33,542 bases of DNA, taken from contig SYLG01000087.1 in the NCBI GenBank assembly GCA_005808665.1, forward strand, positions 1 to 33,542, given 5' to 3'. This DNA comes from Planctomycetia bacterium (lineage in GTDB: Bacteria > Planctomycetota > Planctomycetia > Gemmatales > Gemmataceae). The notes beneath the pieces were generated by a model. It saw nothing but the letters and a program-made list of their open reading frames with translations. It had not been told where the DNA came from and did no database searches. The translations under genes were made by a program, and so were the position numbers. Shown here one piece after another: positions 1,226 through 28,210 of the stretch (within the stretch, counting starts at the first letter, position 1; each line of letters opens with the position of its first letter).

Positions 1226-2512
1226 ATGCGAAGGGTGCTGTTTGGACTTTGCCTTTGGTTGTTGGGGACAGTGCCACCTCCTGCCTGGTCGCAGGTATAT
1301 GAATATGCCTATCCAGGTTCCGACAAGCCTGATGAGTTGATCTACCCGGTTCGGCATATTATGTGGGTTCCTCCCGGCGTCCAAACCCTTCGCGGCATTA
1401 TTGTCCATCAGCATGGATGCGGGGCGGGTGCCTGCAAAGGGGGAGAAACCGCCGCGTTTGACTTGCATTGGCGGGAGTTGGCCAGGCGCAATGACTGTGC
1501 CCTTTTAGGGCCCAGCTATTTCCAAAAAGATGCCGAGGATTGTCGCAAATGGTGTGATCCCAGAAACGGTTCGGAGGTGGTGTTTCTAAAAGCCCTTGGG
1601 GAATTGGCCCAAAAAACCGGCCATCCTGAAATCAAAAATGTTCCCTGGTGCCTTTGGGGCCACTCCGGGGGCGGTTTTTGGGCGAGCATCCTGATGGCCC
1701 GCCATCCCGGCCGGATCGTGGCGGTTTGGTGCCGGTCAGGCACGGCCTTTCCTGCCTGGACCAGTGGCCAAATTCCCAAAGTAATGGTGCCAAAAGAGGC
1801 TTATGCAATCCCTATTGTCCTAAACCCTGGCTTTTTGGAAAAGGGCGACAAACGCTTTCACGGGGCATGGACCGGAGCCGAAGCCATGTTTGCCGCCTGG
1901 CGCCAAAACAATGCCCCCGCCCTCTTTGCCCCCGACCCCCGCTCGGCACACGATTGCGGAGACAGCCGCTACCTTGCCATCCCCTGGTTTGATGCCTGCT
2001 TAAAGGCCCGCTTGGGGCCCGAGGGATTAAAACCTGTGAATCTTTATTCCGGGTTTTTTGTGGGACCGACCCATATGCCCGTTTTCGCCCAGGATTTTTC
2101 GGGTGATTTGCCCACCGCGGGCTGGATTCCAACCAAGGCCATCGCCGATGCCTTTGTCGATTATGTGGTAAGCGGAACGGTGGCGGATTTGACCTCTCCC
2201 AAAGCACCCACGGTAAGGGTGCTTTCCATAATGGGAAAAAAGGTCACCCTCGGCTGGGACGCAGAAGCCGACTTTGAAAGCGGGATACGGTCCTTTGAGA
2301 TCCGTAAAAATGGGAAACGGATCATGACCTTGCCTGAAAAACCGGTGGCCTCGTTTGGTCGGCCCCTCTTTCAGGGACTCAGCTACCACGACACTCCCCA
2401 AGCCTTACTGCCCAAAATGGAGTATACCGACTCCAACGGGGAGGAAGGGGATCAGTACGAAGTCATTACTCTCAATGGGGCAGGGCTCCGTTCCCTCCCG
2501 GGAAAACCGTAA
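1226..2512 (+). CDS. Secreted alpha/beta-hydrolase (esterase-like)
   Basis: The 428-residue protein starts at ATG 1226, behind AGGGGAGGAT at 1211-1220. That choice puts a signal peptide (MRRVLFGLCLWLLG, cleavage near PAWSQ) at the N terminus; an in-frame upstream ATG at 1127 would bury it. A strand HQHGCGAGACKGG could form the oxyanion region. The nucleophile elbow GHSGGG places Ser147 as catalytic, and GPTHMPV is a candidate for the catalytic His. After the hydrolase core, about residues 340-425 look like a fibronectin/Ig-type beta domain (KVTLGWDAEADFESGIRSF). The substrate is unknown. Cysteines are frequent in the core (GCGAGAC, DCRKWCD), consistent with an exported, disulfide-containing enzyme. 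It stands alone, followed by a 117-nt gap. Confidence 0.8.
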   Translation: MRRVLFGLCLWLLGTVPPPAWSQVYEYAYPGSDKPDELIYPVRHIMWVPPGVQTLRGIIVHQHGCGAGACKGGETAAFDLHWRELARRNDCALLGPSYFQKDAEDCRKWCDPRNGSEVVFLKALGELAQKTGHPEIKNVPWCLWGHSGGGFWASILMARHPGRIVAVWCRSGTAFPAWTSGQIPKVMVPKEAYAIPIVLNPGFLEKGDKRFHGAWTGAEAMFAAWRQNNAPALFAPDPRSAHDCGDSRYLAIPWFDACLKARLGPEGLKPVNLYSGFFVGPTHMPVFAQDFSGDLPTAGWIPTKAIADAFVDYVVSGTVADLTSPKAPTVRVLSIMGKKVTLGWDAEADFESGIRSFEIRKNGKRIMTLPEKPVASFGRPLFQGLSYHDTPQALLPKMEYTDSNGEEGDQYEVITLNGAGLRSLPGKP

Positions 2513-2588
2513 GCCGTATTTTTTCATTCCGGAATTCCAGAATCAAACAAGGGTAATTGTAGTGGCAGGAAACCCAAGCGGGTGATAG

Positions 2589-2621
2589 GATATGCATATC
2601 AGAAATTTAGGCTTGCCTAAA
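2589..2621. promoter_or_regulatory. Tandem palindromes upstream of the DUF1559 gene, possible operator
   Basis: Two perfect palindromes sit side by side: GATATGCATATC (2589-2600) and TTTAGGCTTGCCTAAA (2606-2621). The second resembles the DtxR/MntR-type metal-box core (TTAGGC..GCCTAA). It lies immediately before the ATG at 2630, so it could act as an operator if transcription starts just downstream and translation begins at the in-frame ATG at 2666. Function is inference. Confidence 0.4.
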
Positions 2622-2629
2622 AAAATGTT

Positions 2630-3766
2630 ATGCAAGCATGGAAAATTCTTTTTGGGGCCAATCCAATGTCTCCCGAAGTCCATTCAAGAAAACCGCCTAC
2701 CCAATCTGCCAGATCCTCACGAACGGCTTTCACACTCATCGAATTGCTCGTGGTGATTGCAATCATTGCTGTCCTGATCGGCCTGCTATTGCCCGCCGTC
2801 CAAAAGGTCCGTGAAGCGGCCAACCGCATGAGTTGTCAAAACAATCTCAAGCAAATCGGTTTGGCGATGCACAACCATGCTTCCACCAAGGGATGTTACC
2901 CACCCGCCTATAGTACCGCCTCTACCCAAGCCAATGGCACGGCTTTCGGGGTTGCTTATGGTGACAAATACCGGAACGGGCCGCCCGGATGGGCGTGGGG
3001 CGTTTTTTTGTTGCCCTTTCTCGAACAGGAAAACCTCTATAAACAGATCGACCTGTCCCAGCCCTGTTGGGCCCCTCTTTTTGCCCTGCAGGCAAAAACC
3101 AAGGTCGGTATGTTCCTTTGTCCCTCGGCAACGGGTGGGTCAGATGGCTTTGAAGTACAAAAAACCGGGGCGGATATCCGCCATGGCGTACCCCTCCTTC
3201 GGGACGATGGATCTCCCATTGTGTTTTCCCACAGCCACTATGTGACCAATGTTGGGATCCACCAACCCTGGGGAAGAACGACACCTTATTGCTACGACTA
3301 TGACATACCGGAACCGGTGGCGGAGAACAACAACTTTTCCGCCCGAATCGACGGCCCTTTTTACCGAAACTCAAAAACAACCCCTGCCATGGTTCTGGAT
3401 GGCCTTTCCAATACGATTTTTGTCGGCGAACACAGCTCCTTTTTGAGCAACAAAACCTGGGTTGGAGTGGTGCCTGGAGCGGTCACTCCCCCGAGGCTGG
3501 ATTTGCGTCCATGGCCTTCGGAGAACAACGGGGCGGGTTGCCTGGTCAGTGTCCATAGCGGGCCAGACACCCATGACCATCCCCAGGTCATCATTCATGG
3601 ACCCAATGACCCTTTTGGCCACACCGATCAAATGTGGGGGGAACATGGTTATGGCTGCAATGTCCTGATGGGGGATGGTTCCGTTCGCTTCATTACCACT
3701 TTCATTCGCCCCTTGGCATTTGTTGCCCTGTCCACCCGTGACAGTGGGGAAGTGGTTAATGAATAG
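2630..3766 (+). CDS. DUF1559 prepilin-like protein
   Basis: The protein has 378 residues from ATG 2630; an in-frame ATG at 2666 is an equally plausible start, giving 366 residues with a shorter charged N terminus. It carries a type IV pilin-like N-terminal methylation segment ([19 protein letters not shown]), with the F-T-L-I-E boundary that prepilin peptidase recognises, followed by [24 protein letters not shown]. The DUF1559 body follows (LDGLSNTIFVGEHSS), and near the C terminus is H-GYGCNVLMG-DG, the H-X9-DG motif of this family. DUF1559 proteins are greatly expanded in planctomycetes and are thought to be exported pseudopilin-like proteins of unknown role. The stop overlaps the start of the next gene by 8 nt, so the two are translationally coupled. 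Confidence 0.92.
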   Translation: MQAWKILFGANPMSPEVHSRKPPTQSARSSRTAFTLIELLVVIAIIAVLIGLLLPAVQKVREAANRMSCQNNLKQIGLAMHNHASTKGCYPPAYSTASTQANGTAFGVAYGDKYRNGPPGWAWGVFLLPFLEQENLYKQIDLSQPCWAPLFALQAKTKVGMFLCPSATGGSDGFEVQKTGADIRHGVPLLRDDGSPIVFSHSHYVTNVGIHQPWGRTTPYCYDYDIPEPVAENNNFSARIDGPFYRNSKTTPAMVLDGLSNTIFVGEHSSFLSNKTWVGVVPGAVTPPRLDLRPWPSENNGAGCLVSVHSGPDTHDHPQVIIHGPNDPFGHTDQMWGEHGYGCNVLMGDGSVRFITTFIRPLAFVALSTRDSGEVVNE

Positions 3767-5986: not shown

Positions 5987-6592
5987 ATGCCAACCCTCGC
6001 CCCCGTTTCCTGTGGCCCTTGTGCAACCCAATGTTGTCGCTGCGGGCGGAGTTTTGACACCGGAGAGGGGATTTGGTCGGCCCTTGCAGGCATGGCCCAT
6101 CAGGAAAAAGGGGGAGAAAAAACCCGCCAAAGGATGGATTTTTGCCAAAGGTGCTGGACTGGCCCGGGAGAAGGGCTGCCCAATGGGATCGTTTGCTGGT
6201 TTCGGGCCGTTTGTAACCGGGAAACCTTGGGAAGCCAGTCCCAATCCAGGGAGCAGATTCTCTTGAGGAACCTTCAACAACCCAAAGGAATCGGGCCTGG
6301 GGATGGCGAAAAACCCGATGGCCAAGGATCCCAGGAGGCGGTGCGTTATGCAGCTGCACTTGGGCTTTGGCGTATGCAAAGGCTACGATTGGATTCTGTA
6401 GGGGATCGAGATGGCTGCGAAATCCTTCGATTCCGGATCACCGGAACCCAAAAACGATTCGAAGTTTCCAACCCCGGATTATCCGAGGAAGAACTGCGTA
6501 AGATGGAAGAGGACTTGGTCCACAAAGCGCAAGAGGACTTGCGCTTGGGAGGCTTGACTGGATATTCCCCGGAGGGAAATCAAGCCGCATGA
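5987..6592 (+). CDS. Conserved planctomycete-type protein with a four-cysteine zinc site
   Basis: This 201-residue protein has an N-terminal Cys cluster. CCRCGRSFDTGEGIWSAL and, about 30 residues later, RMDFCQRCW form a C-x2-C ... C-x2-C pattern that suggests a zinc-binding fold. The pattern 'C..CGR...GE.(Y/W)S.L ... (R)DFC..CW' resembles a family I associate with planctomycete genomes. The C-terminal third is charged and helical (LSEEELRKMEEDLVHKAQEDL). Start ATG 5987 has no strong ribosome-binding site. The stop overlaps the next start (ATGA at 6589-6592), so the lipoprotein downstream is coupled to it. The role is unknown. Confidence 0.7.
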   Translation: MPTLAPVSCGPCATQCCRCGRSFDTGEGIWSALAGMAHQEKGGEKTRQRMDFCQRCWTGPGEGLPNGIVCWFRAVCNRETLGSQSQSREQILLRNLQQPKGIGPGDGEKPDGQGSQEAVRYAAALGLWRMQRLRLDSVGDRDGCEILRFRITGTQKRFEVSNPGLSEEELRKMEEDLVHKAQEDLRLGGLTGYSPEGNQAA

Positions 6593-19870: not shown

Positions 19871-21154
19871 ATGAGTCCGTTGCTGTTACTCGTCCTGCTT
19901 CAGAACCCGGCTCCTCCGGACGCTGCCCCCAAGCCTGTGGGGCAGACCAGGGTCCAGGAGAAGGAGCTTCTCGAGGCCTACAAGAAGGCCAAACCGCGCC
20001 TGCCTATGCCCCCTGTGGTGGAGGGCCAGGCATCCCGGGTCAACAATGGCCGGTTCCGGCAATACTACCTCGGGCCGGAGTTCCAAACCAGTGGCCTTGG
20101 CGGAAGGGAACCCGACCCGGAATTGACCCTGAACAACACCTTCAAGGTCAAGTTGTTCTGGATTGCCAGCCGGGCCAACAATTGCTTCTATTGACTGGGT
20201 CATCAGGAACACAAGCTTTCCGCCGCCGGGGTCTCCGACGATGGCATTGCCGCCCTTGATAGCGACTGGTCTGTATTTAGCCCGGCAGAACAGGCCGCTT
20301 TCGCCTATGCCCAAAAGCTCACCCATGAACCCTCCTCGATCAATCCTGCAACCATCAAATCCTTGAGGGAGTTTTATTCACCCAATCAGATTCTGGAGAT
20401 GACCATTGCCATTGGTGGCTACAACTCCATGAACCGGTGGACGGATGCCCTGAACATTCCAGGTGAGGAGAATGGAAACTTTTTCAAGAAGGAAGGGGGC
20501 GAAGATCTTTCACGATTTGACACTCCGACCTCTGCGAAATATGCAACTGCAAAGTCGCTAATCATTCCCAAAGCTCCGGCTGGTATTCCTGCCGAGGGGC
20601 CTGGGCGCCTGAGTCTTGCTGACCTTAACAGGAAAGTGGTTGAGGCATCCAAACGCGCCCCGACTTTGCCATTGGCCGAGGCCGCCCCTGCCACCTGGAA
20701 CACTTCCAACAAAGCTTGGGTGAGGCTCCTGGCAACCTTTACCAAGTCGGGCAAAACACGCCATGATGGGGTGATCAATTGCCAAACAAAGGGATCTCTC
20801 TCGCCCAAACTTCGTGGGGCTATCGCCTGGGTGGCGGCTCGGGAGGATGGGGCCCTTTATGCGTTTGACCTTGCCACCAAACAACTCAAGGATCTGGGGC
20901 TCTCGGATTCTGAAATCATGGGGTTGGATGAGGTTGGGTTGGCACTCGAACCGGGCGATCGGACGGCCCTCCCCCTGGTTAGAAAACTAACCGTCGCTCC
21001 AGCAACGGTCGCTGATGCGGATGTGGTTATCCTTCGTAAGGCCTTGGGAGGGTCTTTTACCGACAAACAGGTGGCAGAGATTGTCCACCAGGTTTGTAAC
21101 GCTTCCTTTTTTCACCGGGTAACCGAGGCGGCAAACCTGCCCGTTGGAAACTAG
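19871..21154 (+). CDS. AhpD/CMD-like selenoprotein with CxxU active site (TGA at 20192-20194 read as Sec)
   Basis: The frame runs from ATG 19871 (AGGAGT 8 nt upstream) to TAG at 21154, 427 residues, with one in-frame TGA at codon 108. Sequence on both sides is continuous with an AhpD/carboxymuconolactone decarboxylase fold: FWIASRANNCFY-TGA-LGHQEHKLSAAGVSDD. Family members have C-x-x-C-x-x-x-H here, so TGA replaces the second (peroxidatic) Cys, giving C105-F-Y-U108. After the TGA the domain goes on (FSPAEQAAFAYAQKLT, EFYSPNQILEMTIAIGGYNSMNR). A second, degenerate CMD repeat covers about residues 255-425; its equivalent site reads A328-L-Y-A331. An N-terminal hydrophobic segment (MSPLLLLVLLQ) suggests export. 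AhpD-like selenoproteins are a known group. A simple nonsense mutation is the alternative, but the intact downstream frame and hairpin argue against it. Confidence 0.85.
20220..20244 (+). promoter_or_regulatory. Candidate bacterial SECIS element, AhpD-like gene
   Basis: Downstream of the TGA the sequence can form a hairpin: CCG..CG..CGG on the 5' side and CCG..CG..TGG on the 3' side, with two C-A mismatches and one G-U pair. The apical loop is GGUCU (20230-20234), the loop sequence found in the E. coli fdhF SECIS. It starts 35 nt after the TGA, inside the range usual for bacterial SECIS elements (about 16-37 nt). Confidence 0.65.
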
Positions 21155-21171
21155 CCAAAGACAAGGAACGA

Positions 21172-21205
21172 GGGGCCTGCGGGGATTCCGTTTCCCGCAG
21201 GCCCC
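21172..21205. terminator. Intrinsic terminator between convergent genes
   Basis: GGGGCCTGCGGG (21172-21183) and CCCGCAGGCCCC (21194-21205) form a perfect 12-bp stem with a 10-nt loop, followed by TTGGTTTGTT on the plus strand. It begins 17 nt after the AhpD-like stop and could also stop the convergent operon ending at 21256. Confidence 0.85.
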
Positions 21206-21255
21206 TTGGTTTGTTCATTCCATACTAGAGAAAATGGAGGGTTTTAGGTTCCGCT

Positions 21256-22503
21256 TTAATTAGGTAAAGGTCGACCATCGGGTCGATCTGGGGCAGGACG
21301 GCGTTCCCCACGGGGGGGAGCATCCGCTTCGGGACGACGACCATCGGGACCATCAGGACGGCGATCCCCACGGGGGGGAGCATCTGCTTCAGGCCGACGA
21401 CCATCCGGGCCATCGGGACGGCGTTCCCCACGGGGAGGAGCATCCGCTTCGGGACGACGACCATCCGGGCCATCAGGACGGCGTTCCCCACGAGGAGGAG
21501 CAATCCGGTCATCACCCGGTCCCCCCGGTCCACCAAATCCAGGACGACCACCCCCGGGTCCCCCCGGTCCACCAACGCCTGGTCGGCCACCGGGTCCACC
21601 AGGACCACCGGGTCCTCCCGGTCCACGGCCAATCGGACCATTTTCCCGTATTTCTTTGAGGTGATTGCGTTGCTCTGCAGTAAGGATTTTTTCGAGCTTG
21701 GCGGTCGTCTCCTTTTGAAGGTCATCCATCTGTTTTCTTTGTTCGTCACTTAGCCCAAGGATCTGCCCCAAAAACGGTGGGAAAATCTGGCCGGGACCAC
21801 CGGCGGGCATTCTGCCGCCACCGCCCACACCAGGGAAACCTCCCCGGACACCTGGTCCTCCAGGACCTCGTCCCGGTCCCGCACCAGGCTGACCAGGGAA
21901 CCCTTCACCTCGAGGCCCAGCCCCCTCCCGACCCGGTTCCCTTCCCTGTCCATTACGGCCCGGAGCCCTTTCGCCCGGTTGTCCAGGAGCTCCCTCTCGT
22001 CCCGGTCCACCCGCTGGTCGTTCCGGGCCATCCCGCCCCGGTCCAGCGGTTGGGTGCCCCGGGAACCCTTCGCGTCCTGGTTCTGTTCCATCACGGCCAG
22101 GTCCCCTTTCGCCCCTTGGTCCGGGAGCCCCATCCCTTCCCGGTCCATCACGACCCGGGGCACCATCCCCACCACGGCCACCCTGAGGACCGAGAATCGC
22201 CGCTTCCTGGGCTTTCAAAGCCGTGAGCTCTTCTTTGGTAACTTTGCCATCCTTGTTGGCGTCGGCCCGGTTGAAGGCTCGAAGCAACCCTTCTGGAACA
22301 CTCTCCCGGTTGATGTTTCCTTCTTTGTCCTTTTCCAGGGCAGAAAGGCGAGCGGAAGCGGTTTGACCTCCTTGAATGGGGCGAGCCCCTTCCGGAGGGC
22401 GGTCGGGGGCCCTATCTCCCCGCGGAGGTTGGGCCAGGGCGAAAGAGGCCGAGAATACGCCCATTATCACCCACCCAGATCTTGCAAATCGAAACATTGT
22501 CAT
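21256..22503 (-). CDS. Secreted EF-hand, collagen-like protein with tandem repeats
   Basis: The 415-residue protein has a signal peptide (SGWVIMGVFSASFALA) and two EF-hand-type segments: a degenerate one (LEKDKEGNINRESV) and a good one (ADANKDGKVTKEEL). A long Gly-Pro-rich, Arg/Asp-rich region of collagen-like character follows (about residues 105-235). Next is a helical segment resembling Spy/LTxxQ-type proteins (LGLSDEQRKQMDDLQKET, LTAEQRNHLKEI), then a second Gly-rich stretch. The C terminus is a 20-residue tandem repeat (PPRGERRPDGPDGRRPEADA). It lies 12 nt after the thioredoxin-PDZ selenoprotein gene and is the last gene of that operon. AGGAAAGGG precedes the start; ATG 22497 is an alternative. 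Confidence 0.8.
   Translation of the reverse strand: MTMFRFARSGWVIMGVFSASFALAQPPRGDRAPDRPPEGARPIQGGQTASARLSALEKDKEGNINRESVPEGLLRAFNRADANKDGKVTKEELTALKAQEAAILGPQGGRGGDGAPGRDGPGRDGAPGPRGERGPGRDGTEPGREGFPGHPTAGPGRDGPERPAGGPGREGAPGQPGERAPGRNGQGREPGREGAGPRGEGFPGQPGAGPGRGPGGPGVRGGFPGVGGGGRMPAGGPGQIFPPFLGQILGLSDEQRKQMDDLQKETTAKLEKILTAEQRNHLKEIRENGPIGRGPGGPGGPGGPGGRPGVGGPGGPGGGRPGFGGPGGPGDDRIAPPRGERRPDGPDGRRPEADAPPRGERRPDGPDGRRPEADAPPRGDRRPDGPDGRRPEADAPPRGERRPAPDRPDGRPLPN
21285..21500 (-). repeat. 60-nt tandem coding repeat, about 3.5 copies
   Basis: Units of exactly 60 nt (for example 21301-21360, 21361-21420, 21421-21480) encode the 20-residue C-terminal repeat of the EF-hand/collagen-like protein. 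Copies differ by a few bases only, so copy number may vary between strains. Confidence 0.9.
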
Positions 22504-22515
22504 TACCCTTTCCTG

Positions 22516-23784
22516 TTAGTTGGCAAGAGGCACTGGCACAATCACGCTCCGGCCCATCCGGTTCACGCGAACCCGCACCGTTTCCCCCACCAAAAATTCA
22601 CGCTCCACAAAACCAGTCAAATCCGCCGATTCGAAAACAAGAGTTTTCCCCTCGATTCCAACCACGACATCCTTTGGTTCAAATCCAAGGTCCACCAACC
22701 GGGGCGAAAGCTTGGCCGCAAGGCGAAAAGCCATCAGCTTGGGCGACAGTCCCAACCCCGTTTTCTCATCCTTGGTCAAGTCCTTCCCCGGAAGGGAAAA
22801 CCTCGGAATCATCCGCCGCATGGAGGTGCGCCAAGTGATGTCGCCCTGCCTCCACCCTTCGGTCAATTCCAGAGAGGCCTCCTGGTCCTTGCCAGATCGC
22901 CTAAAGCTTAATGTAATCAATCCCTGCCGAGGGGCACGGTCCAAAGCGGTTTGAGTGTCGGCAAAACCATGAATGGGGATATCTTCAATCTGGCGAAGGC
23001 GATCCCCGATTCGGAGCCCGGCTTTGCCTGCGGCGGATCCTTTGCCAACGGCTTCCACAAGATCCGGATTGTCCACGCCAAGCTTGATGCCGATGTTTTC
23101 GGGTAAGGGATAGCGCCAAACCTGGTCCCTGTCCCATTCTTCCCTGGCCACAAGACGGCGGTTCAATTCTTCCCTGATTTGGTGGCAGTGCATACAGCCC
23201 TTGAATTTCGTGCCCAAATCATGGATGAAAAGGGGCCCGCCCGGCTGTCGTTTGGCAACCCGATCCTTTTCGTTTTGGTGGGTATAAAGCACCGAGGTCA
23301 TCGTTTTTCTCAATCCCTCAAGCGATTGGCGGCTGTCGGGGCCTTCCGCATCGCGGCCCCCATAACGGGCATAGATCCGGTCGTTGGCATCCATGAAAAA
23401 CACCATCATGGTCAGGTCAAAATCAAACTCAAACAGGTTGAGGTCGTCCTGATCTATGCGCGACAATCGTACGCGCACAAATTGGTCCGCTTCCCTTTTG
23501 ATCTTTTCCAGACGAACAACCTGCCCGTCAAATTCATGGCAAGCCGTTCAGGGAATGCAGCGGATCACCACCATTAAAGGCAGGCCGCTTTTCTTCGCCA
23601 GGGCTTTGGCTTCCTGATAGTTGGCGTGCCAACCATATTTCGCTCCGCTCTCGTCTCGTCCTCGCTGGGCCAAAACCCAAGGGGAGGTAACCGTCCAAGC
23701 CCCATAAGCGCAATAGGCAGAAACCGCAACCAAGCTAATCCGTATCCAGGGTACCTGGTGAAAAAGGCCATCCCACGAAAGCAT
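22516..23784 (-). CDS. Membrane-anchored thioredoxin-PDZ selenoprotein with CxxU (TGA at 23550-23548 read as Sec)
   Basis: ATG 23784 follows AAGGGGAC. A single TGA at codon 79 interrupts a frame that otherwise runs to 22516 (422 residues). Residues 14-30 form a signal anchor (RISLVAVSAYCAYGAW). The thioredoxin-like domain follows: ANYQEAKALAKKSGLPLMVVIRC, then IP-TGA-TACHEFDGQVV. The TGA thus takes the second position of a C76-I-P-U79 motif, with a further Cys four residues on (U-T-A-C-H). After it come LFEFDFDLTMMVFFMDAND (the second thioredoxin strand region) and LGTKFKGCMHCHQIRE with a C-x2-C-H haem- or metal-like site. Two PDZ domains follow (about 170-240 and 305-400; VGKGSAAGKAGLRIGDRL, LVDLGFEPKDVVVGI). 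It sits 23 nt after the EF-hand selenoprotein gene. Confidence 0.82.
23507..23532 (-). promoter_or_regulatory. Candidate bacterial SECIS element, thioredoxin-PDZ gene
   Basis: On the minus strand GACGGGC (23529-23523) pairs with GTTCGTC (23517-23511) using two G-U pairs. Past one bulged T (23510), three more pairs extend the stem. The apical loop is AGGUU (23522-23518), starting 25 nt after the TGA. A G at the loop top and a bulged U in the stem are features of known bacterial SECIS hairpins. Confidence 0.55.
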
Positions 23785-23807
23785 TCTTGTCCCCTTTGAA
23801 GTTTCTT

Positions 23808-25187
23808 TTACGGTCTTGAGGAAGGTGTTATTTTCGCAGCTGGGTGTCGGGCCCTGGCCCGGTTTTCCTGTAAATCGGTGACAGGAATGGCAGTTTCCCA
23901 AAATGCCCCTGCCTCAAAACCTGCAGTCAAGTGACCACGAAAGTTGCGGGCGGTGGCTTGAAACCCCGCCGCACCAAGGGCCAGCGTGTCTGCCAGTTTT
24001 CCACCTTTGTCTCCTGGATCCAAACGGGCCAATATCCGCCCGGATAGGCCAAAGGGATCTGCTTGAACCACGGCCATGGCCGGGACCTTTCCGCCGTCAA
24101 GATGCAAAAGTTTACCCATTTCAGAAGCGTTGCCCTGACAAAGAACAAAACGACCTTGCCAGGGAGAATCAAAAAACAGGTCGGTCATGGCGGCCTCAAA
24201 CCCTGGGCCTGCGGCAGGTCCAAGAACAACCAAGGGAAGATTATCACACGCTGCCACATTGATCGCCAACCTCAGGTTGGCAAGGGCAGGTGATGTTTTC
24301 AATCGCCCGGGGGTTTCCTTTGTGGTTTGTTTTGCGGAAATCAGACGCATGGCTTCGGCCATTCGAACCGAGCTGCCAAACACCCGTTCTGGCCCCCGGG
24401 AAATTGGGGAAAGGGGAGTTTTTCCATCGCTTTTGAGCAGCGCAAAGGTGGAGTTTTCCATTTGTCCACTACGGCCTTGGTAGAGGCCAAGGAGGTAGTC
24501 CCGTTCCTTGGCACTTTCATAGGTGGTGGGGCGAATGGCGACAAATGGGCGTGATGCCAGGATCACCTCTACCGTGGACAGGAAACTCCTGTCTGCTTCC
24601 TGTTTTCCCGGTCACCAAACCCCAGGTACGCCTCCACAGCTGGGAGCCGCTGACATGAGCAGGATGGGTTTCCCGGTCTGTTTGGCCTCGGCGAGTCCTG
24701 CCTCCAGGTCGGTGTACCAAGCGATGGCATCCGGGATATTGACTCCCTTGGCAGCACCCTGTTTAGGAGATCCTTTTTCAGATGGATCGGGTTTTTCAAA
24801 GGGTGGCCTTGTTCCAGGTCCCTCTTTTCCATCTTCCGGACCACCCTTGCCGTCGGGGGGGCCTTTCTTGCCAAAACCCTTTTTCCCCTCTTTTTTGCCT
24901 TCATAGCCCTCTTTGCCCAAGCCAAGCCTCATTCTCCTCGGCATCATCTCCTCGCGGCTCAACACACCATCTTTGTTTTTGTCGAGTTTTTTCAACGATT
25001 CAGTGGCTTGTTTGAGTTCTTCCGGGGAAATTTGGCCATCTTTGTCCAAATCAAGGGCTTCGACCAATGGGTTGATGGGAAAACCGCCAGGTCCCATCGG
25101 GGGCCCACCAAAGGGTGGCTGGGCCAGGATCCAACTCCCTCCGGCCATCAAAAGGGAAATCAAGGTCCATTTGGTACTACGATTCAT
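23808..25187 (-). CDS. Secreted EF-hand thioredoxin-like selenoprotein (TGA at 24614-24612 read as Sec)
   Basis: The frame runs from ATG 25187 to 23808 with a single in-frame TGA at codon 192 (459 residues). A signal peptide (WTLISLLMAGGSWILA) is followed by two EF-hands, ALDLDKDGQISPEEL and KLDKNKDGVLSREEM, then a Lys/Gly/Pro-rich linker. A thioredoxin-like domain begins near residue 155: AEAKQTGKPILLMSAAPSCGG, VPGVW-TGA-PGKQEADRSFL, VILASRPFVAIRPTTYES. The W-U-P-G-K segment aligns with W-C-G-P-C/K of thioredoxins, placing Sec at the nucleophile position with no resolving Cys in CxxC; C184 lies eight residues upstream. A second thioredoxin-like region may follow (DSPWQGRFVLCQGNASEMGKLL). It is the first gene of a three-gene operon with the thioredoxin-PDZ selenoprotein and the EF-hand/collagen-like protein. 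Confidence 0.82.
24577..24593 (-). promoter_or_regulatory. Candidate bacterial SECIS element, EF-hand selenoprotein gene
   Basis: GACAGGA (24593-24587) and TCCTGTC (24583-24577) form a perfect 7-bp stem capped by GUU (24586-24584). The loop starts 25 nt after the TGA and its first base is G. This is the cleanest of the three hairpins and lies within coding sequence, as bacterial SECIS elements must. Confidence 0.7.
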
Positions 25188-25447: not shown

Positions 25448-28210
25448 ATGGCCAGGCTCAATCGTTTCCCGGTAAAACCGACCGTCCTTCCCTATTTGGA
25501 ATCCCTGGAGAGCAGGGCTCTTCCCGCCGTCAACTTTATTGGGGTTAGTAGCGGTATCCTTTCCATTCGAACGGATGATTTTCCCACGGTTGTAAAAGTG
25601 GAATTCACCCTGACCGGCGTTGCCCCGGTTCAAGTGGAGCGTATCAAGGTAACCGAAGGGAGTTCCCGGGTTATAGGCAATTACATATTTCAGGAGGTGA
25701 CCAGGGTTGAATTTACTGGGGGAAGGGGGGATGACACATTTAACGCAAGGGGTATCCCCTTTCATGTCCAGGCCCTTGGTAATGATGGCCATGACCAATT
25801 ACGAGGCGGATCGGGGACGAACTCGCTGGATGGTGGGAACGGCAACGATTCCATTTGGTATACCGGCCGCGGTTCTGTTTATGGGGGAATGGGCAACGAT
25901 TCCATTACCACCGGTAATGGAATCGACTACATTGATGCGGGGGAGGGAAATGACGGAATCAGTGCCCAAGGTGGTAACGATGAGGTAGATGCTGGGTTGG
26001 GGGATGATCGTATTGATGGGGGCGAAGGGAACGATATCATCCGGGGTGGCGGTGGGGTCGACCAAATCAATGGCGAGGGGGGAAACGACCAGTTGGAGGG
26101 CAACGATGACAACGATGACCTGTTTGGTGGAGCAGGAAACGACACCCTGAACGGGAATGGGGGTAACGACAACCTGCGGGGCAATGATGGGGATGATATC
26201 CTGAATGGCGGCGAAGGCAACGATTACCTGGCCGGATGGATTGGCCATGATTTTCTTAACGGTGGCAATGGCAACGACACCGCCTATGGAGGTGAAGGAA
26301 ACGATACCATCAACGGGTGGGCAGGAGAGGATGCCCTAAATGGGGAATCGGGTAATGACATCCTCAATGGTGGGGATGACAATGATGCCATCCATGGTGA
26401 GGATGGCAACGATACCATCAATGGGGGTGGGGGTAACGATCGGCTTGTTGGACTGGCCGGACAAGACACGATCAACGGGGATGGAGGCAACGATACCATC
26501 ACCGGAGGGCTTGGTGCGGACACGCTCCATGGAGGTGATGGCAACGATACGATCAATGGCAACGAAGATGCCGACCTCATCACCGGCGGAGCGGGACAAG
26601 ACAGGCTTCTGGGCAATGCAGGGAACGATACCATCTCGGGCAATGCGGATGCTGATACCATCGACGGGGGATCCGGCTTGGACCGGCTGGATGGAAACCT
26701 TGGAGGCGATACGATCGATGGCGGAACCGAGGCCGACACGATTTACGGGGGCCCTGATGGGGACACGGTTCGGGGCGGCGGGGGCATAGACACTATCTTT
26801 GGTGGGGATGGTGGGGATTCCCTTTTGGGTGGTGCAGGCAATGATGTCATTTACGGAGGTAACGGCCGCGATTCCCTCCTCGGGGAGGAAGGCAACGACA
26901 CCCTCTCTGGGGAGGCAGACGATGACTTCATCAATGGGGGAATCGGGGCGGACATCCTTACCGGGGGATTAGGAAAGGACCGGCTAGAAGGCAGTAACGA
27001 CAACGACATCATCGACGGTGGTGGGGATGCAGATTTTATTCTGGGTGGGTTGGGCGATGATACCCTTCGGGGGGGAGATGGGAACGATACGATCAACGGC
27101 AATGCCGGCCTGGACCAATTGTTTGGGGGCAATGGCGATGATATTTTGATCGCTCTCGATGACCTTTACACCGATATTTTACAAGGGGATGGTGGGAGGG
27201 ATGCCTTTTGGTCGGACGCAACAGGAGTCATCCGGGGTGGGGTTCGCCAAGGCGATGTAAGGCGGGATCTGGGTGCGGTGGATGTGGACAACTTTGTCAG
27301 AGCATTTACTTTTACGGGCATGGACCGAACCCTGGATGGAGAAGCTATAGGAGACCCCACCGTTACCGGGTTGGGTTATCAGCGTTTTGGCGACCATCCT
27401 CTTTACCCCGCAAACGGTCCAACCGGAGCGGACATCGACCAGGGTGCGGTACCGGATTGCATGATCCTTGCCGCCTTTTCTGCCTTGGCTCACAACACCA
27501 CCTCGGGCTTGGCTTGGCCGATTCGTCGGGCCATGGTCGATTTCGGGGATGGAACGGTAGGATTCGCTTTGAATTTTGGGGGAGGAGTCCCTGAGTTTCG
27601 GTTAAGGATGGATGCCGATTTGCCGGTCGATGCCTTGGGCAACCTCGTTTTCGCAAGGCTTGGCAAGGAGGGCAGTCTCTGGGTGCCCTTGGCGGAAAAA
27701 GCAATTGTGTATCTCAATAACTGGGCCAGTGCTGCGGGCTACCTCGGTGTACCTGCCAATATACCTCTCAATTATGCCAATCTGGATTTCGCTCGAAGGT
27801 CTCCACGCCAAATATTCACCTATTTTGGCTCAGCAGATACAGGTAGGTTTAACTGTTCCAGTTTTGCCAGTGCCCAGGCAATGGCCGATGACCTATTCAC
27901 CCGGTGGAATGGCTACCAGAATGTCGTCTTTGGTGTGGGGGACAACAACTTCGCCCTGGGAATTCCGGTAAATCACGCTTACACACTATGGGCGGTAAAT
28001 CGCAACCCTGCCGGCCAAGTCACCTCCATTGTCCTTCGCAATCCTTGGGGGGTCGATGGCGGCCGGGACCAACAGGGTTATCTGGCGTATGCCGATGCCA
28101 ATCCGAATGATGCGTTAATCACCCTCACCCCGGACCAACTCTATGCAACCACTCCGGGTTTTGATGAGGAAGAGGGCACCTTTTACTGGTGGGGATCCCG
28201 AATCGTCTGA
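25448..28210 (+). CDS. Surface protein: RTX-type calcium repeats plus calpain-like cysteine protease
   Basis: ATG 25448 follows AAGGAGATC; the frame extends to a TTG at 25409 without support. The 920-residue protein starts with a basic segment and the planctomycete tag LPYLESLESRALPAVNF. About residues 105-575 are dozens of glycine/aspartate nonapeptide-type repeats (GGNGNDTI, GGEGNDYLAG) that fold as a calcium-bound parallel beta-roll. The C-terminal 260 residues are a calpain (peptidase C2) domain: GAVPDCMILAAFSALA with Cys671, PVNHAYTLWAV with His843, and LRNPWG with Asn865, so the catalytic triad is complete. Calcium probably stabilises the repeat region outside the cell. It is divergent from the selenoprotein operon. 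Confidence 0.92.
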   Translation: MARLNRFPVKPTVLPYLESLESRALPAVNFIGVSSGILSIRTDDFPTVVKVEFTLTGVAPVQVERIKVTEGSSRVIGNYIFQEVTRVEFTGGRGDDTFNARGIPFHVQALGNDGHDQLRGGSGTNSLDGGNGNDSIWYTGRGSVYGGMGNDSITTGNGIDYIDAGEGNDGISAQGGNDEVDAGLGDDRIDGGEGNDIIRGGGGVDQINGEGGNDQLEGNDDNDDLFGGAGNDTLNGNGGNDNLRGNDGDDILNGGEGNDYLAGWIGHDFLNGGNGNDTAYGGEGNDTINGWAGEDALNGESGNDILNGGDDNDAIHGEDGNDTINGGGGNDRLVGLAGQDTINGDGGNDTITGGLGADTLHGGDGNDTINGNEDADLITGGAGQDRLLGNAGNDTISGNADADTIDGGSGLDRLDGNLGGDTIDGGTEADTIYGGPDGDTVRGGGGIDTIFGGDGGDSLLGGAGNDVIYGGNGRDSLLGEEGNDTLSGEADDDFINGGIGADILTGGLGKDRLEGSNDNDIIDGGGDADFILGGLGDDTLRGGDGNDTINGNAGLDQLFGGNGDDILIALDDLYTDILQGDGGRDAFWSDATGVIRGGVRQGDVRRDLGAVDVDNFVRAFTFTGMDRTLDGEAIGDPTVTGLGYQRFGDHPLYPANGPTGADIDQGAVPDCMILAAFSALAHNTTSGLAWPIRRAMVDFGDGTVGFALNFGGGVPEFRLRMDADLPVDALGNLVFARLGKEGSLWVPLAEKAIVYLNNWASAAGYLGVPANIPLNYANLDFARRSPRQIFTYFGSADTGRFNCSSFASAQAMADDLFTRWNGYQNVVFGVGDNNFALGIPVNHAYTLWAVNRNPAGQVTSIVLRNPWGVDGGRDQQGYLAYADANPNDALITLTPDQLYATTPGFDEEEGTFYWWGSRIV

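What the first reader, a model, noticed from the sequence alone, without database searches (positions are those of the whole stretch)
19871..25187. Selenoprotein island: three Sec-dependent exported redox proteins within 5.4 kb
Three of four consecutive genes need UGA recoding, two of them in one operon with an EF-hand/collagen-like protein and the third convergent and sharing a terminator region. All have export signals and redox folds. TGA is a normal stop elsewhere in the window (for example at 6592, 9008 and 28210), so recoding is local. The cluster suggests a dedicated envelope redox system, perhaps AhpD-like plus thioredoxin-like partners, with calcium-binding modules.
Basis: inference. 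Interest (0 to 1): 0.92.

Follow-up and report, generated by a model that had tools for sequence, protein, structure and literature searches.

The report
Three selenoproteins, one of new family
Three neighbouring genes of a planctomycete really do read a "stop" codon as selenocysteine to make probable cell-surface redox proteins; the grouping is local rather than a conserved system, but one of the three belongs to a widespread selenoprotein family that I could not find described.

Summary
Three of four adjacent genes (CMD 19871-21154 +, Trx-PDZ 22516-23784 -, EF-hand/Trx 23808-25187 -) have one in-frame UGA at the expected redox position. The genome has tRNA-Sec, SelA, SelB and a Sec-containing SelD. 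Homologues keep UGA or put Cys in the same column: Trx-PDZ 30/30 Sec, with Cys paralogues; CMD 11 Sec/20 Cys; EF/Trx 20/20 Sec. A SECIS-like hairpin follows two of the UGAs at fixed spacing, and synonymous sites are conserved just after all three.

The 'dedicated system' reading is only partly supported. Even within the genus, the EF/Trx gene is not beside Trx-PDZ, and in other genera all three lie apart, still with UGA or Cys. The EF-hands look genus-specific. The genome has at least nine selenoproteins.

Trx-PDZ is the known family NF041199. CMD is a new member of the known CMD/AhpD-like CxxU kind. The third is the discovery: an exported tandem-thioredoxin family with motif C-x7-U (WUPGK), found across Planctomycetota and Verrucomicrobiota, Sec in 79 of 80 loci, absent from NCBIfam and from a 119-family 2026 inventory.

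The parts
19871..21154 (+). CMD (carboxymuconolactone decarboxylase / AhpD-like) selenoprotein gene, 427 aa, motif NNCFYULGHQEH
   Evidence: PF02627 31.8 bits over cut-off 23; same column 11 U / 20 C
20192..20194 (+). Sec UGA codon of CMD (residue 108)
20195..20254 (+). synonymously constrained stretch after the UGA: presumed SECIS, non-canonical; candidate GGTCT loop at 20230-20234
   Evidence: 89% identical synonymous codons against 47% for the gene; the maximum of the gene; hairpin weak
21169..21208 (.). terminator-like hairpin between the convergent genes, 17 pairs
21256..22503 (-). probably exported EF-hand / collagen-like protein with Spy-like module, no Sec
22516..23784 (-). Trx7/PDZ selenoprotein gene, 422 aa, motif RCxPUxxC, plus invariant CxHCH
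   Evidence: (NF041199 388 bits, cut-off 300)
23548..23550 (-). Sec UGA codon of Trx-PDZ (residue 79)
23511..23529 (-). SECIS hairpin of Trx-PDZ, 7 pairs, loop AGGUU, 18 nt after the UGA
23808..25187 (-). EF-hand + tandem-thioredoxin selenoprotein gene, 459 aa, motif C-x7-U (WUPGK); new selenoprotein family
24612..24614 (-). Sec UGA codon of the EF/Trx gene (residue 192)
24576..24594 (-). SECIS hairpin of the EF/Trx gene, loop AGUUU, 17 nt after the UGA

Best explanation
Three genuine selenoprotein genes lie together in this genome. Shown by comparison: UGA is decoded as Sec at an active-site position, using a complete SelA/SelB/SelD/tRNA-Sec set and SECIS-type RNA just downstream. Inferred: all three products are exported and act as thiol/selenol oxidoreductases in the cell envelope. 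In the EF/Trx protein, Sec192 sits at the start of the redox helix, where thioredoxin has its nucleophilic Cys (WU for WC); the usual second Cys is a Lys, and the invariant Cys184 eight residues upstream is probably the resolving partner (a selenenylsulfide C184-U192). A second thioredoxin fold without an active site follows, as in PDI-type proteins. Trx-PDZ would use U79 with C82 (and C76), with PDZ domains to hold client proteins and a CxHCH site that could bind haem or a metal. CMD would use a C105/U108 pair as in AhpD-like enzymes. The proximity of the three is not a conserved functional unit; the lasting finding is the EF/Trx core as a new, almost always Sec-containing protein family.
For: Machinery: tRNA-Sec 70.4 bits, SelB, SelD over cut-off with an in-frame TGA, motif CAGUAGK, SelA. 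Sec position: aligned homologues; Cys paralogues of Trx-PDZ read RCxPCxxC; CMD changes between Sec and Cys at least 5 times on its tree; EF/Trx 79 Sec to 1 Cys in 80 loci, and the Cys form has lost the hairpin. RNA: covarying hairpins, synonymous constraint after each UGA. Fold: AlphaFold core pLDDT about 90, Foldseek DsbD-gamma and PDI; Trx-PDZ model pLDDT 87, DegP/DegQ-type PDZ matches. Export: 72 of 77 EF/Trx N-termini examined are hydrophobic. Loose synteny.
Against: No protein, selenium-labelling or activity data. The CMD hairpin in this genus is weak and does not match the GCUCGC-GGUC-GCGGGC hairpin of other genera. C184-U192 pairing is inferred from sequence and secondary structure only. 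Most genomes are drafts, so some adjacency may be hidden at contig ends. The CMD signal peptide is short.
Confidence: 0.85

Rival explanations
1. A dedicated three-selenoprotein envelope redox system, kept together because the proteins work on each other.
For: Tight minus-strand operon with shared terminator region; a chance cluster is unlikely; CMD/EF-hand/Trx-PDZ order kept in G070; the EF-hand protein shares a Spy-like module with EF/Trx orthologues of other genera; known precedents such as the Sao and Tso selenoprotein operons (PMC13188914).
Against: EF/Trx is not beside Trx-PDZ even in the same genus; all three are apart in other genera; EF/Trx has no recurrent neighbour across the phylum.
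Confidence: 0.12
2. UGA codons are stops or sequencing errors and the genes are degraded pseudogenes.
For: Only that table 11 breaks the frames there.
Against: One TGA at the same column in dozens of independent genomes, Cys alternates, covarying hairpins, full Sec machinery.
Confidence: 0.01
3. UGA is recoded to another amino acid genome-wide (code change).
For: None beyond the read-through itself.
Against: TGA ends ordinary genes in the same window; recoding sits only at redox-site positions with SECIS-like RNA; alternates are Cys.
Confidence: 0.01

Closest known systems
NCBIfam NF041199 trx7_PDZ_seleno (Trx7/PDZ domain-containing (seleno)protein)
   Same: Trx-PDZ scores 388 bits against a cut-off of 300; listed as a Sec family in PMC13188914.
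   Different: Nothing essential; I add the invariant CxHCH and a clade-specific EF-hand/collagen partner gene.
CMD-like and AhpD-like CxxU selenoproteins (PF02627, TIGR01926)
   Same: CMD domain over the Pfam cut-off, CxxU at the CxxC site.
   Different: Longer (427 aa), probably exported, below the TIGR01926, NF041238 and NF053654 cut-offs; His at U+3.
Thioredoxin-like selenoproteins, including VPGUxxT (NF041382/NF041383)
   Same: Thioredoxin fold with Sec near the redox helix.
   Different: The window EF/Trx protein scores at most 16.5 bits against the VPGUxxT and Trx7/PDZ models (cut-offs 275-350), and no member of 20 passes any cut-off; motif is C-x7-U (WUPGK); second, inactive thioredoxin fold.
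Protein disulfide isomerase and DsbD C-terminal domain
   Same: Tandem thioredoxin folds, a-b like arrangement; first domain nearest DsbD-gamma.
   Different: Sec, no CxxC, resolving Cys upstream; low sequence identity.
Tso and Sao selenoprotein operons
   Same: Several selenoprotein genes together.
   Different: Those are described as co-operonic systems; here the gene order is not conserved and the families differ.

Membership tests
Bacterial selenoprotein (all three genes) | tRNA-Sec, SelA, SelB, SelD in the genome | tested here: met
Bacterial selenoprotein (all three genes) | In-frame UGA aligned with Cys or Sec in homologues | tested here: met
Bacterial selenoprotein: Trx-PDZ and EF/Trx | SECIS hairpin shortly after the UGA | tested here: met
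Bacterial selenoprotein: CMD | SECIS hairpin shortly after the UGA | tested here: inconclusive
   strong synonymous constraint but only a weak hairpin in this genus; a clear hairpin in other genera
Bacterial selenoprotein (all three genes) | Selenium shown in the protein | not testable with these tools
   needs 75Se or mass spectrometry
NF041199 Trx7/PDZ | Score over curated cut-off | tested here: met
   388.4 against 300 bits
PF02627 CMD | Score over gathering cut-off | tested here: met
   31.8 against 23 bits
AhpD / peroxidase-related models (TIGR01926, NF041238, NF053654) | Score over curated cut-off | tested here: not met
   58.3 against 81.8; 11.9 against 175; 39.3 against 310
PF13899 Thioredoxin_7 (EF/Trx protein) | Score over gathering cut-off | tested here: not met
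   21.6 against 27 bits, partial; thioredoxin fold supported by the model
Any NCBIfam family (EF/Trx) | Any member over any cut-off | tested here: not met
   20 members scanned
Conserved multi-selenoprotein operon | Gene order kept in relatives | tested here: not met
   partly kept within the genus

The most novel reading that the evidence does not exclude
The EF/Trx core is a new, near-obligate selenoprotein family of the planctomycete-verrucomicrobial envelope that uses an unusual C-x7-U redox pair on a tandem thioredoxin scaffold, and the CMD gene of this genus uses a non-canonical SECIS element.
Probability: 0.6. Interest if true: 0.7.

Novelty: new variant of a known kind. Interest (0 to 1): 0.62.

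Why it matters
Planctomycetes are hardly mentioned in the selenoprotein literature I could search, yet Sec machinery appears nearly universal in this family of genomes (SelB over cut-off in 81 of 95). A widespread family that is Sec 79 times out of 80 is useful for the open question of why some enzymes keep selenium, because many selenoprotein families have common Cys forms (general knowledge). Automatic annotation is likely to cut these genes at the UGA, so the family is easily missed.

Tried and rejected
A combined SECIS covariance model was abandoned because MAFFT misaligned the three families. A PF02627 search missed even the window gene, so it cannot be used to count CMD proteins. Recurrent neighbours of EF/Trx were sought; the larger clusters looked mostly like reverse-strand shadows of the gene itself. 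Pseudogene and code-change readings were rejected. The PDB profile hit to an AI-designed protein was ignored as spurious. Supplementary tables of the Porphyra planctomycete paper (PMC4807772) could not be read, so a published listing of one of these families there cannot be excluded.

Full report
What is there. Reading TGA as Sec opens three genes in the window, each with one TGA: CMD at 19871-21154 (+), Trx-PDZ at 22516-23784 (-) and EF/Trx at 23808-25187 (-). Between CMD and Trx-PDZ lies an ordinary gene at 21256-22503 (-) for a probably exported protein with an EF-hand and Gly-X-Y-rich stretches. EF/Trx, Trx-PDZ and the EF-hand gene are separated by 23 and 12 nt, so they probably form one operon. 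CMD is convergent, and a 17-pair terminator-like hairpin lies at 21169-21208. TGA ends ordinary genes in the same window.

Is the recoding real? Yes. The genome has tRNA-Sec (70.4 bits), SelB, SelA and SelD; SelD itself has an in-frame TGA in the motif CAGUAGK. In 95 genomes of the family, close Trx-PDZ hits carry almost without exception one TGA and more distant paralogues carry none. In the alignments the column holds U in 30 of 30 Trx-PDZ, 20 of 20 EF/Trx, and 11 U with 20 C in CMD. The distant Trx-PDZ paralogues read RCxPCxxC and still belong to the same family model. On the CMD tree the residue changes at least five times between Sec and Cys.

RNA signals. Trx-PDZ has a 7-pair hairpin with loop AGGUU 18 nt after the UGA; 95.9% of cells pair against 91.7% in shuffles, with nine two-sided changes. 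EF/Trx has a similar hairpin 17 nt after the UGA; over 82 distinct sequences 95.5% of cells pair, against 90.2% in column shuffles (maximum 91.6%) and at most 55% when slid. CMD of other genera has GCUCGC-GGUC-GCGGGC at about the same distance. In the window genus that hairpin is gone, yet the 20 codons after the UGA are the most conserved at synonymous sites in the whole gene (89% against 47%). I take this as a divergent SECIS, unproven.

What the proteins are. Trx-PDZ is NCBIfam NF041199 (388 bits, cut-off 300), already in the 2026 inventory of prokaryotic selenoproteins (PMC13188914). Its model has a thioredoxin domain and PDZ domains, and its CxHCH motif is invariant in 33 sequences. CMD passes Pfam PF02627 but no NCBIfam AhpD model. 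EF/Trx passes no NCBIfam model in any of 20 members, and I did not find its motif in the 119-family table. Its core is two thioredoxin folds; the first resembles DsbD-gamma and the pair resembles PDI. The Sec immediately precedes helix 193-203; the invariant Cys184 lies in the short strand pair before it. That they form a redox pair is inference.

How widespread is EF/Trx? 58 of 392 sampled Planctomycetota genomes have a match, and the full-length ones carry a TGA. A scan of 84,980 species genomes kept 80 loci: most are named Planctomycetota, 11 Verrucomicrobiota, and a few others. Of these, 79 have Sec and one has Cys (L315, an uncultured Pirellula). One of the two search patterns spelled Cys at this site, which should if anything favour Cys forms. 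The Cys form groups with a Sec form and has lost the hairpin. This is not a census. Of 77 N-termini examined 72 are hydrophobic, so export looks general; an EF-hand pattern was found in none of the 77 but is present in the window and in G070.

Is it an island? Only locally. In G070, of the same genus, the order CMD / EF-hand gene / Trx-PDZ is kept, but EF/Trx is on another contig, not followed by Trx-PDZ. In other genera of the family the three are on separate contigs. No recurrent neighbour of EF/Trx was found across the phylum. The pair Trx-PDZ plus EF-hand/collagen gene is kept in genus g35 as well. A chance cluster of this kind is improbable but the figure is post hoc. A weak link remains: the EF-hand protein shares a Spy-like module with EF/Trx orthologues of other genera (45% over 49 aa).

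Selenoproteome. Besides the three, this genome has a second Trx-PDZ, a peroxiredoxin (TPGU), two double-Sec candidates (UGGU and ULSU), a UxxC thioredoxin-like protein and SelD: at least nine.

Verdict. Observation confirmed. The lasting point is a new selenoprotein family with an unusual C-x7-U motif, found in many genomes and likely truncated in annotation.

Noticed in passing
25448-28210 (+): Protein with 21 RTX/haemolysin-type calcium-binding repeat stretches followed by a calpain-type (Peptidase_C2) domain, next to the selenoprotein operon.
   Followed up: no
L174 (G000:C178) and L175 (G000:C88): Two further genes of this genome with two in-frame TGAs each at the redox site (UGGU and YULSU), candidate double-Sec thioredoxin/AhpC-like proteins.
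   Followed up: partly
L105 (G070:C224), about 2429-2746 (+): In the same-genus relative, the EF/Trx gene has another selenoprotein candidate (UxxC, thioredoxin-like, ALWUPFCK) on the same 6-kb contig.
   Followed up: partly
22516-23784 (-), residues 197-201: Invariant CxHCH in Trx-PDZ proteins, Sec and Cys forms alike: possible haem-c or metal site.
   Followed up: partly
20195-20254 (+): CMD of the window genus lacks the SECIS hairpin of its relatives but has the most constrained synonymous sites of the gene there.
   Followed up: partly
21256-22503 (-), about residues 225-290: Spy-like helical module shared with the N-terminal part of EF/Trx orthologues in other genera.
   Followed up: partly
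L252 (CAMBMH010000224.1): The same-genus relative is titled Singulisphaera although it falls with a genome titled Gemmataceae in family f1; the name may be wrong.
   Followed up: no
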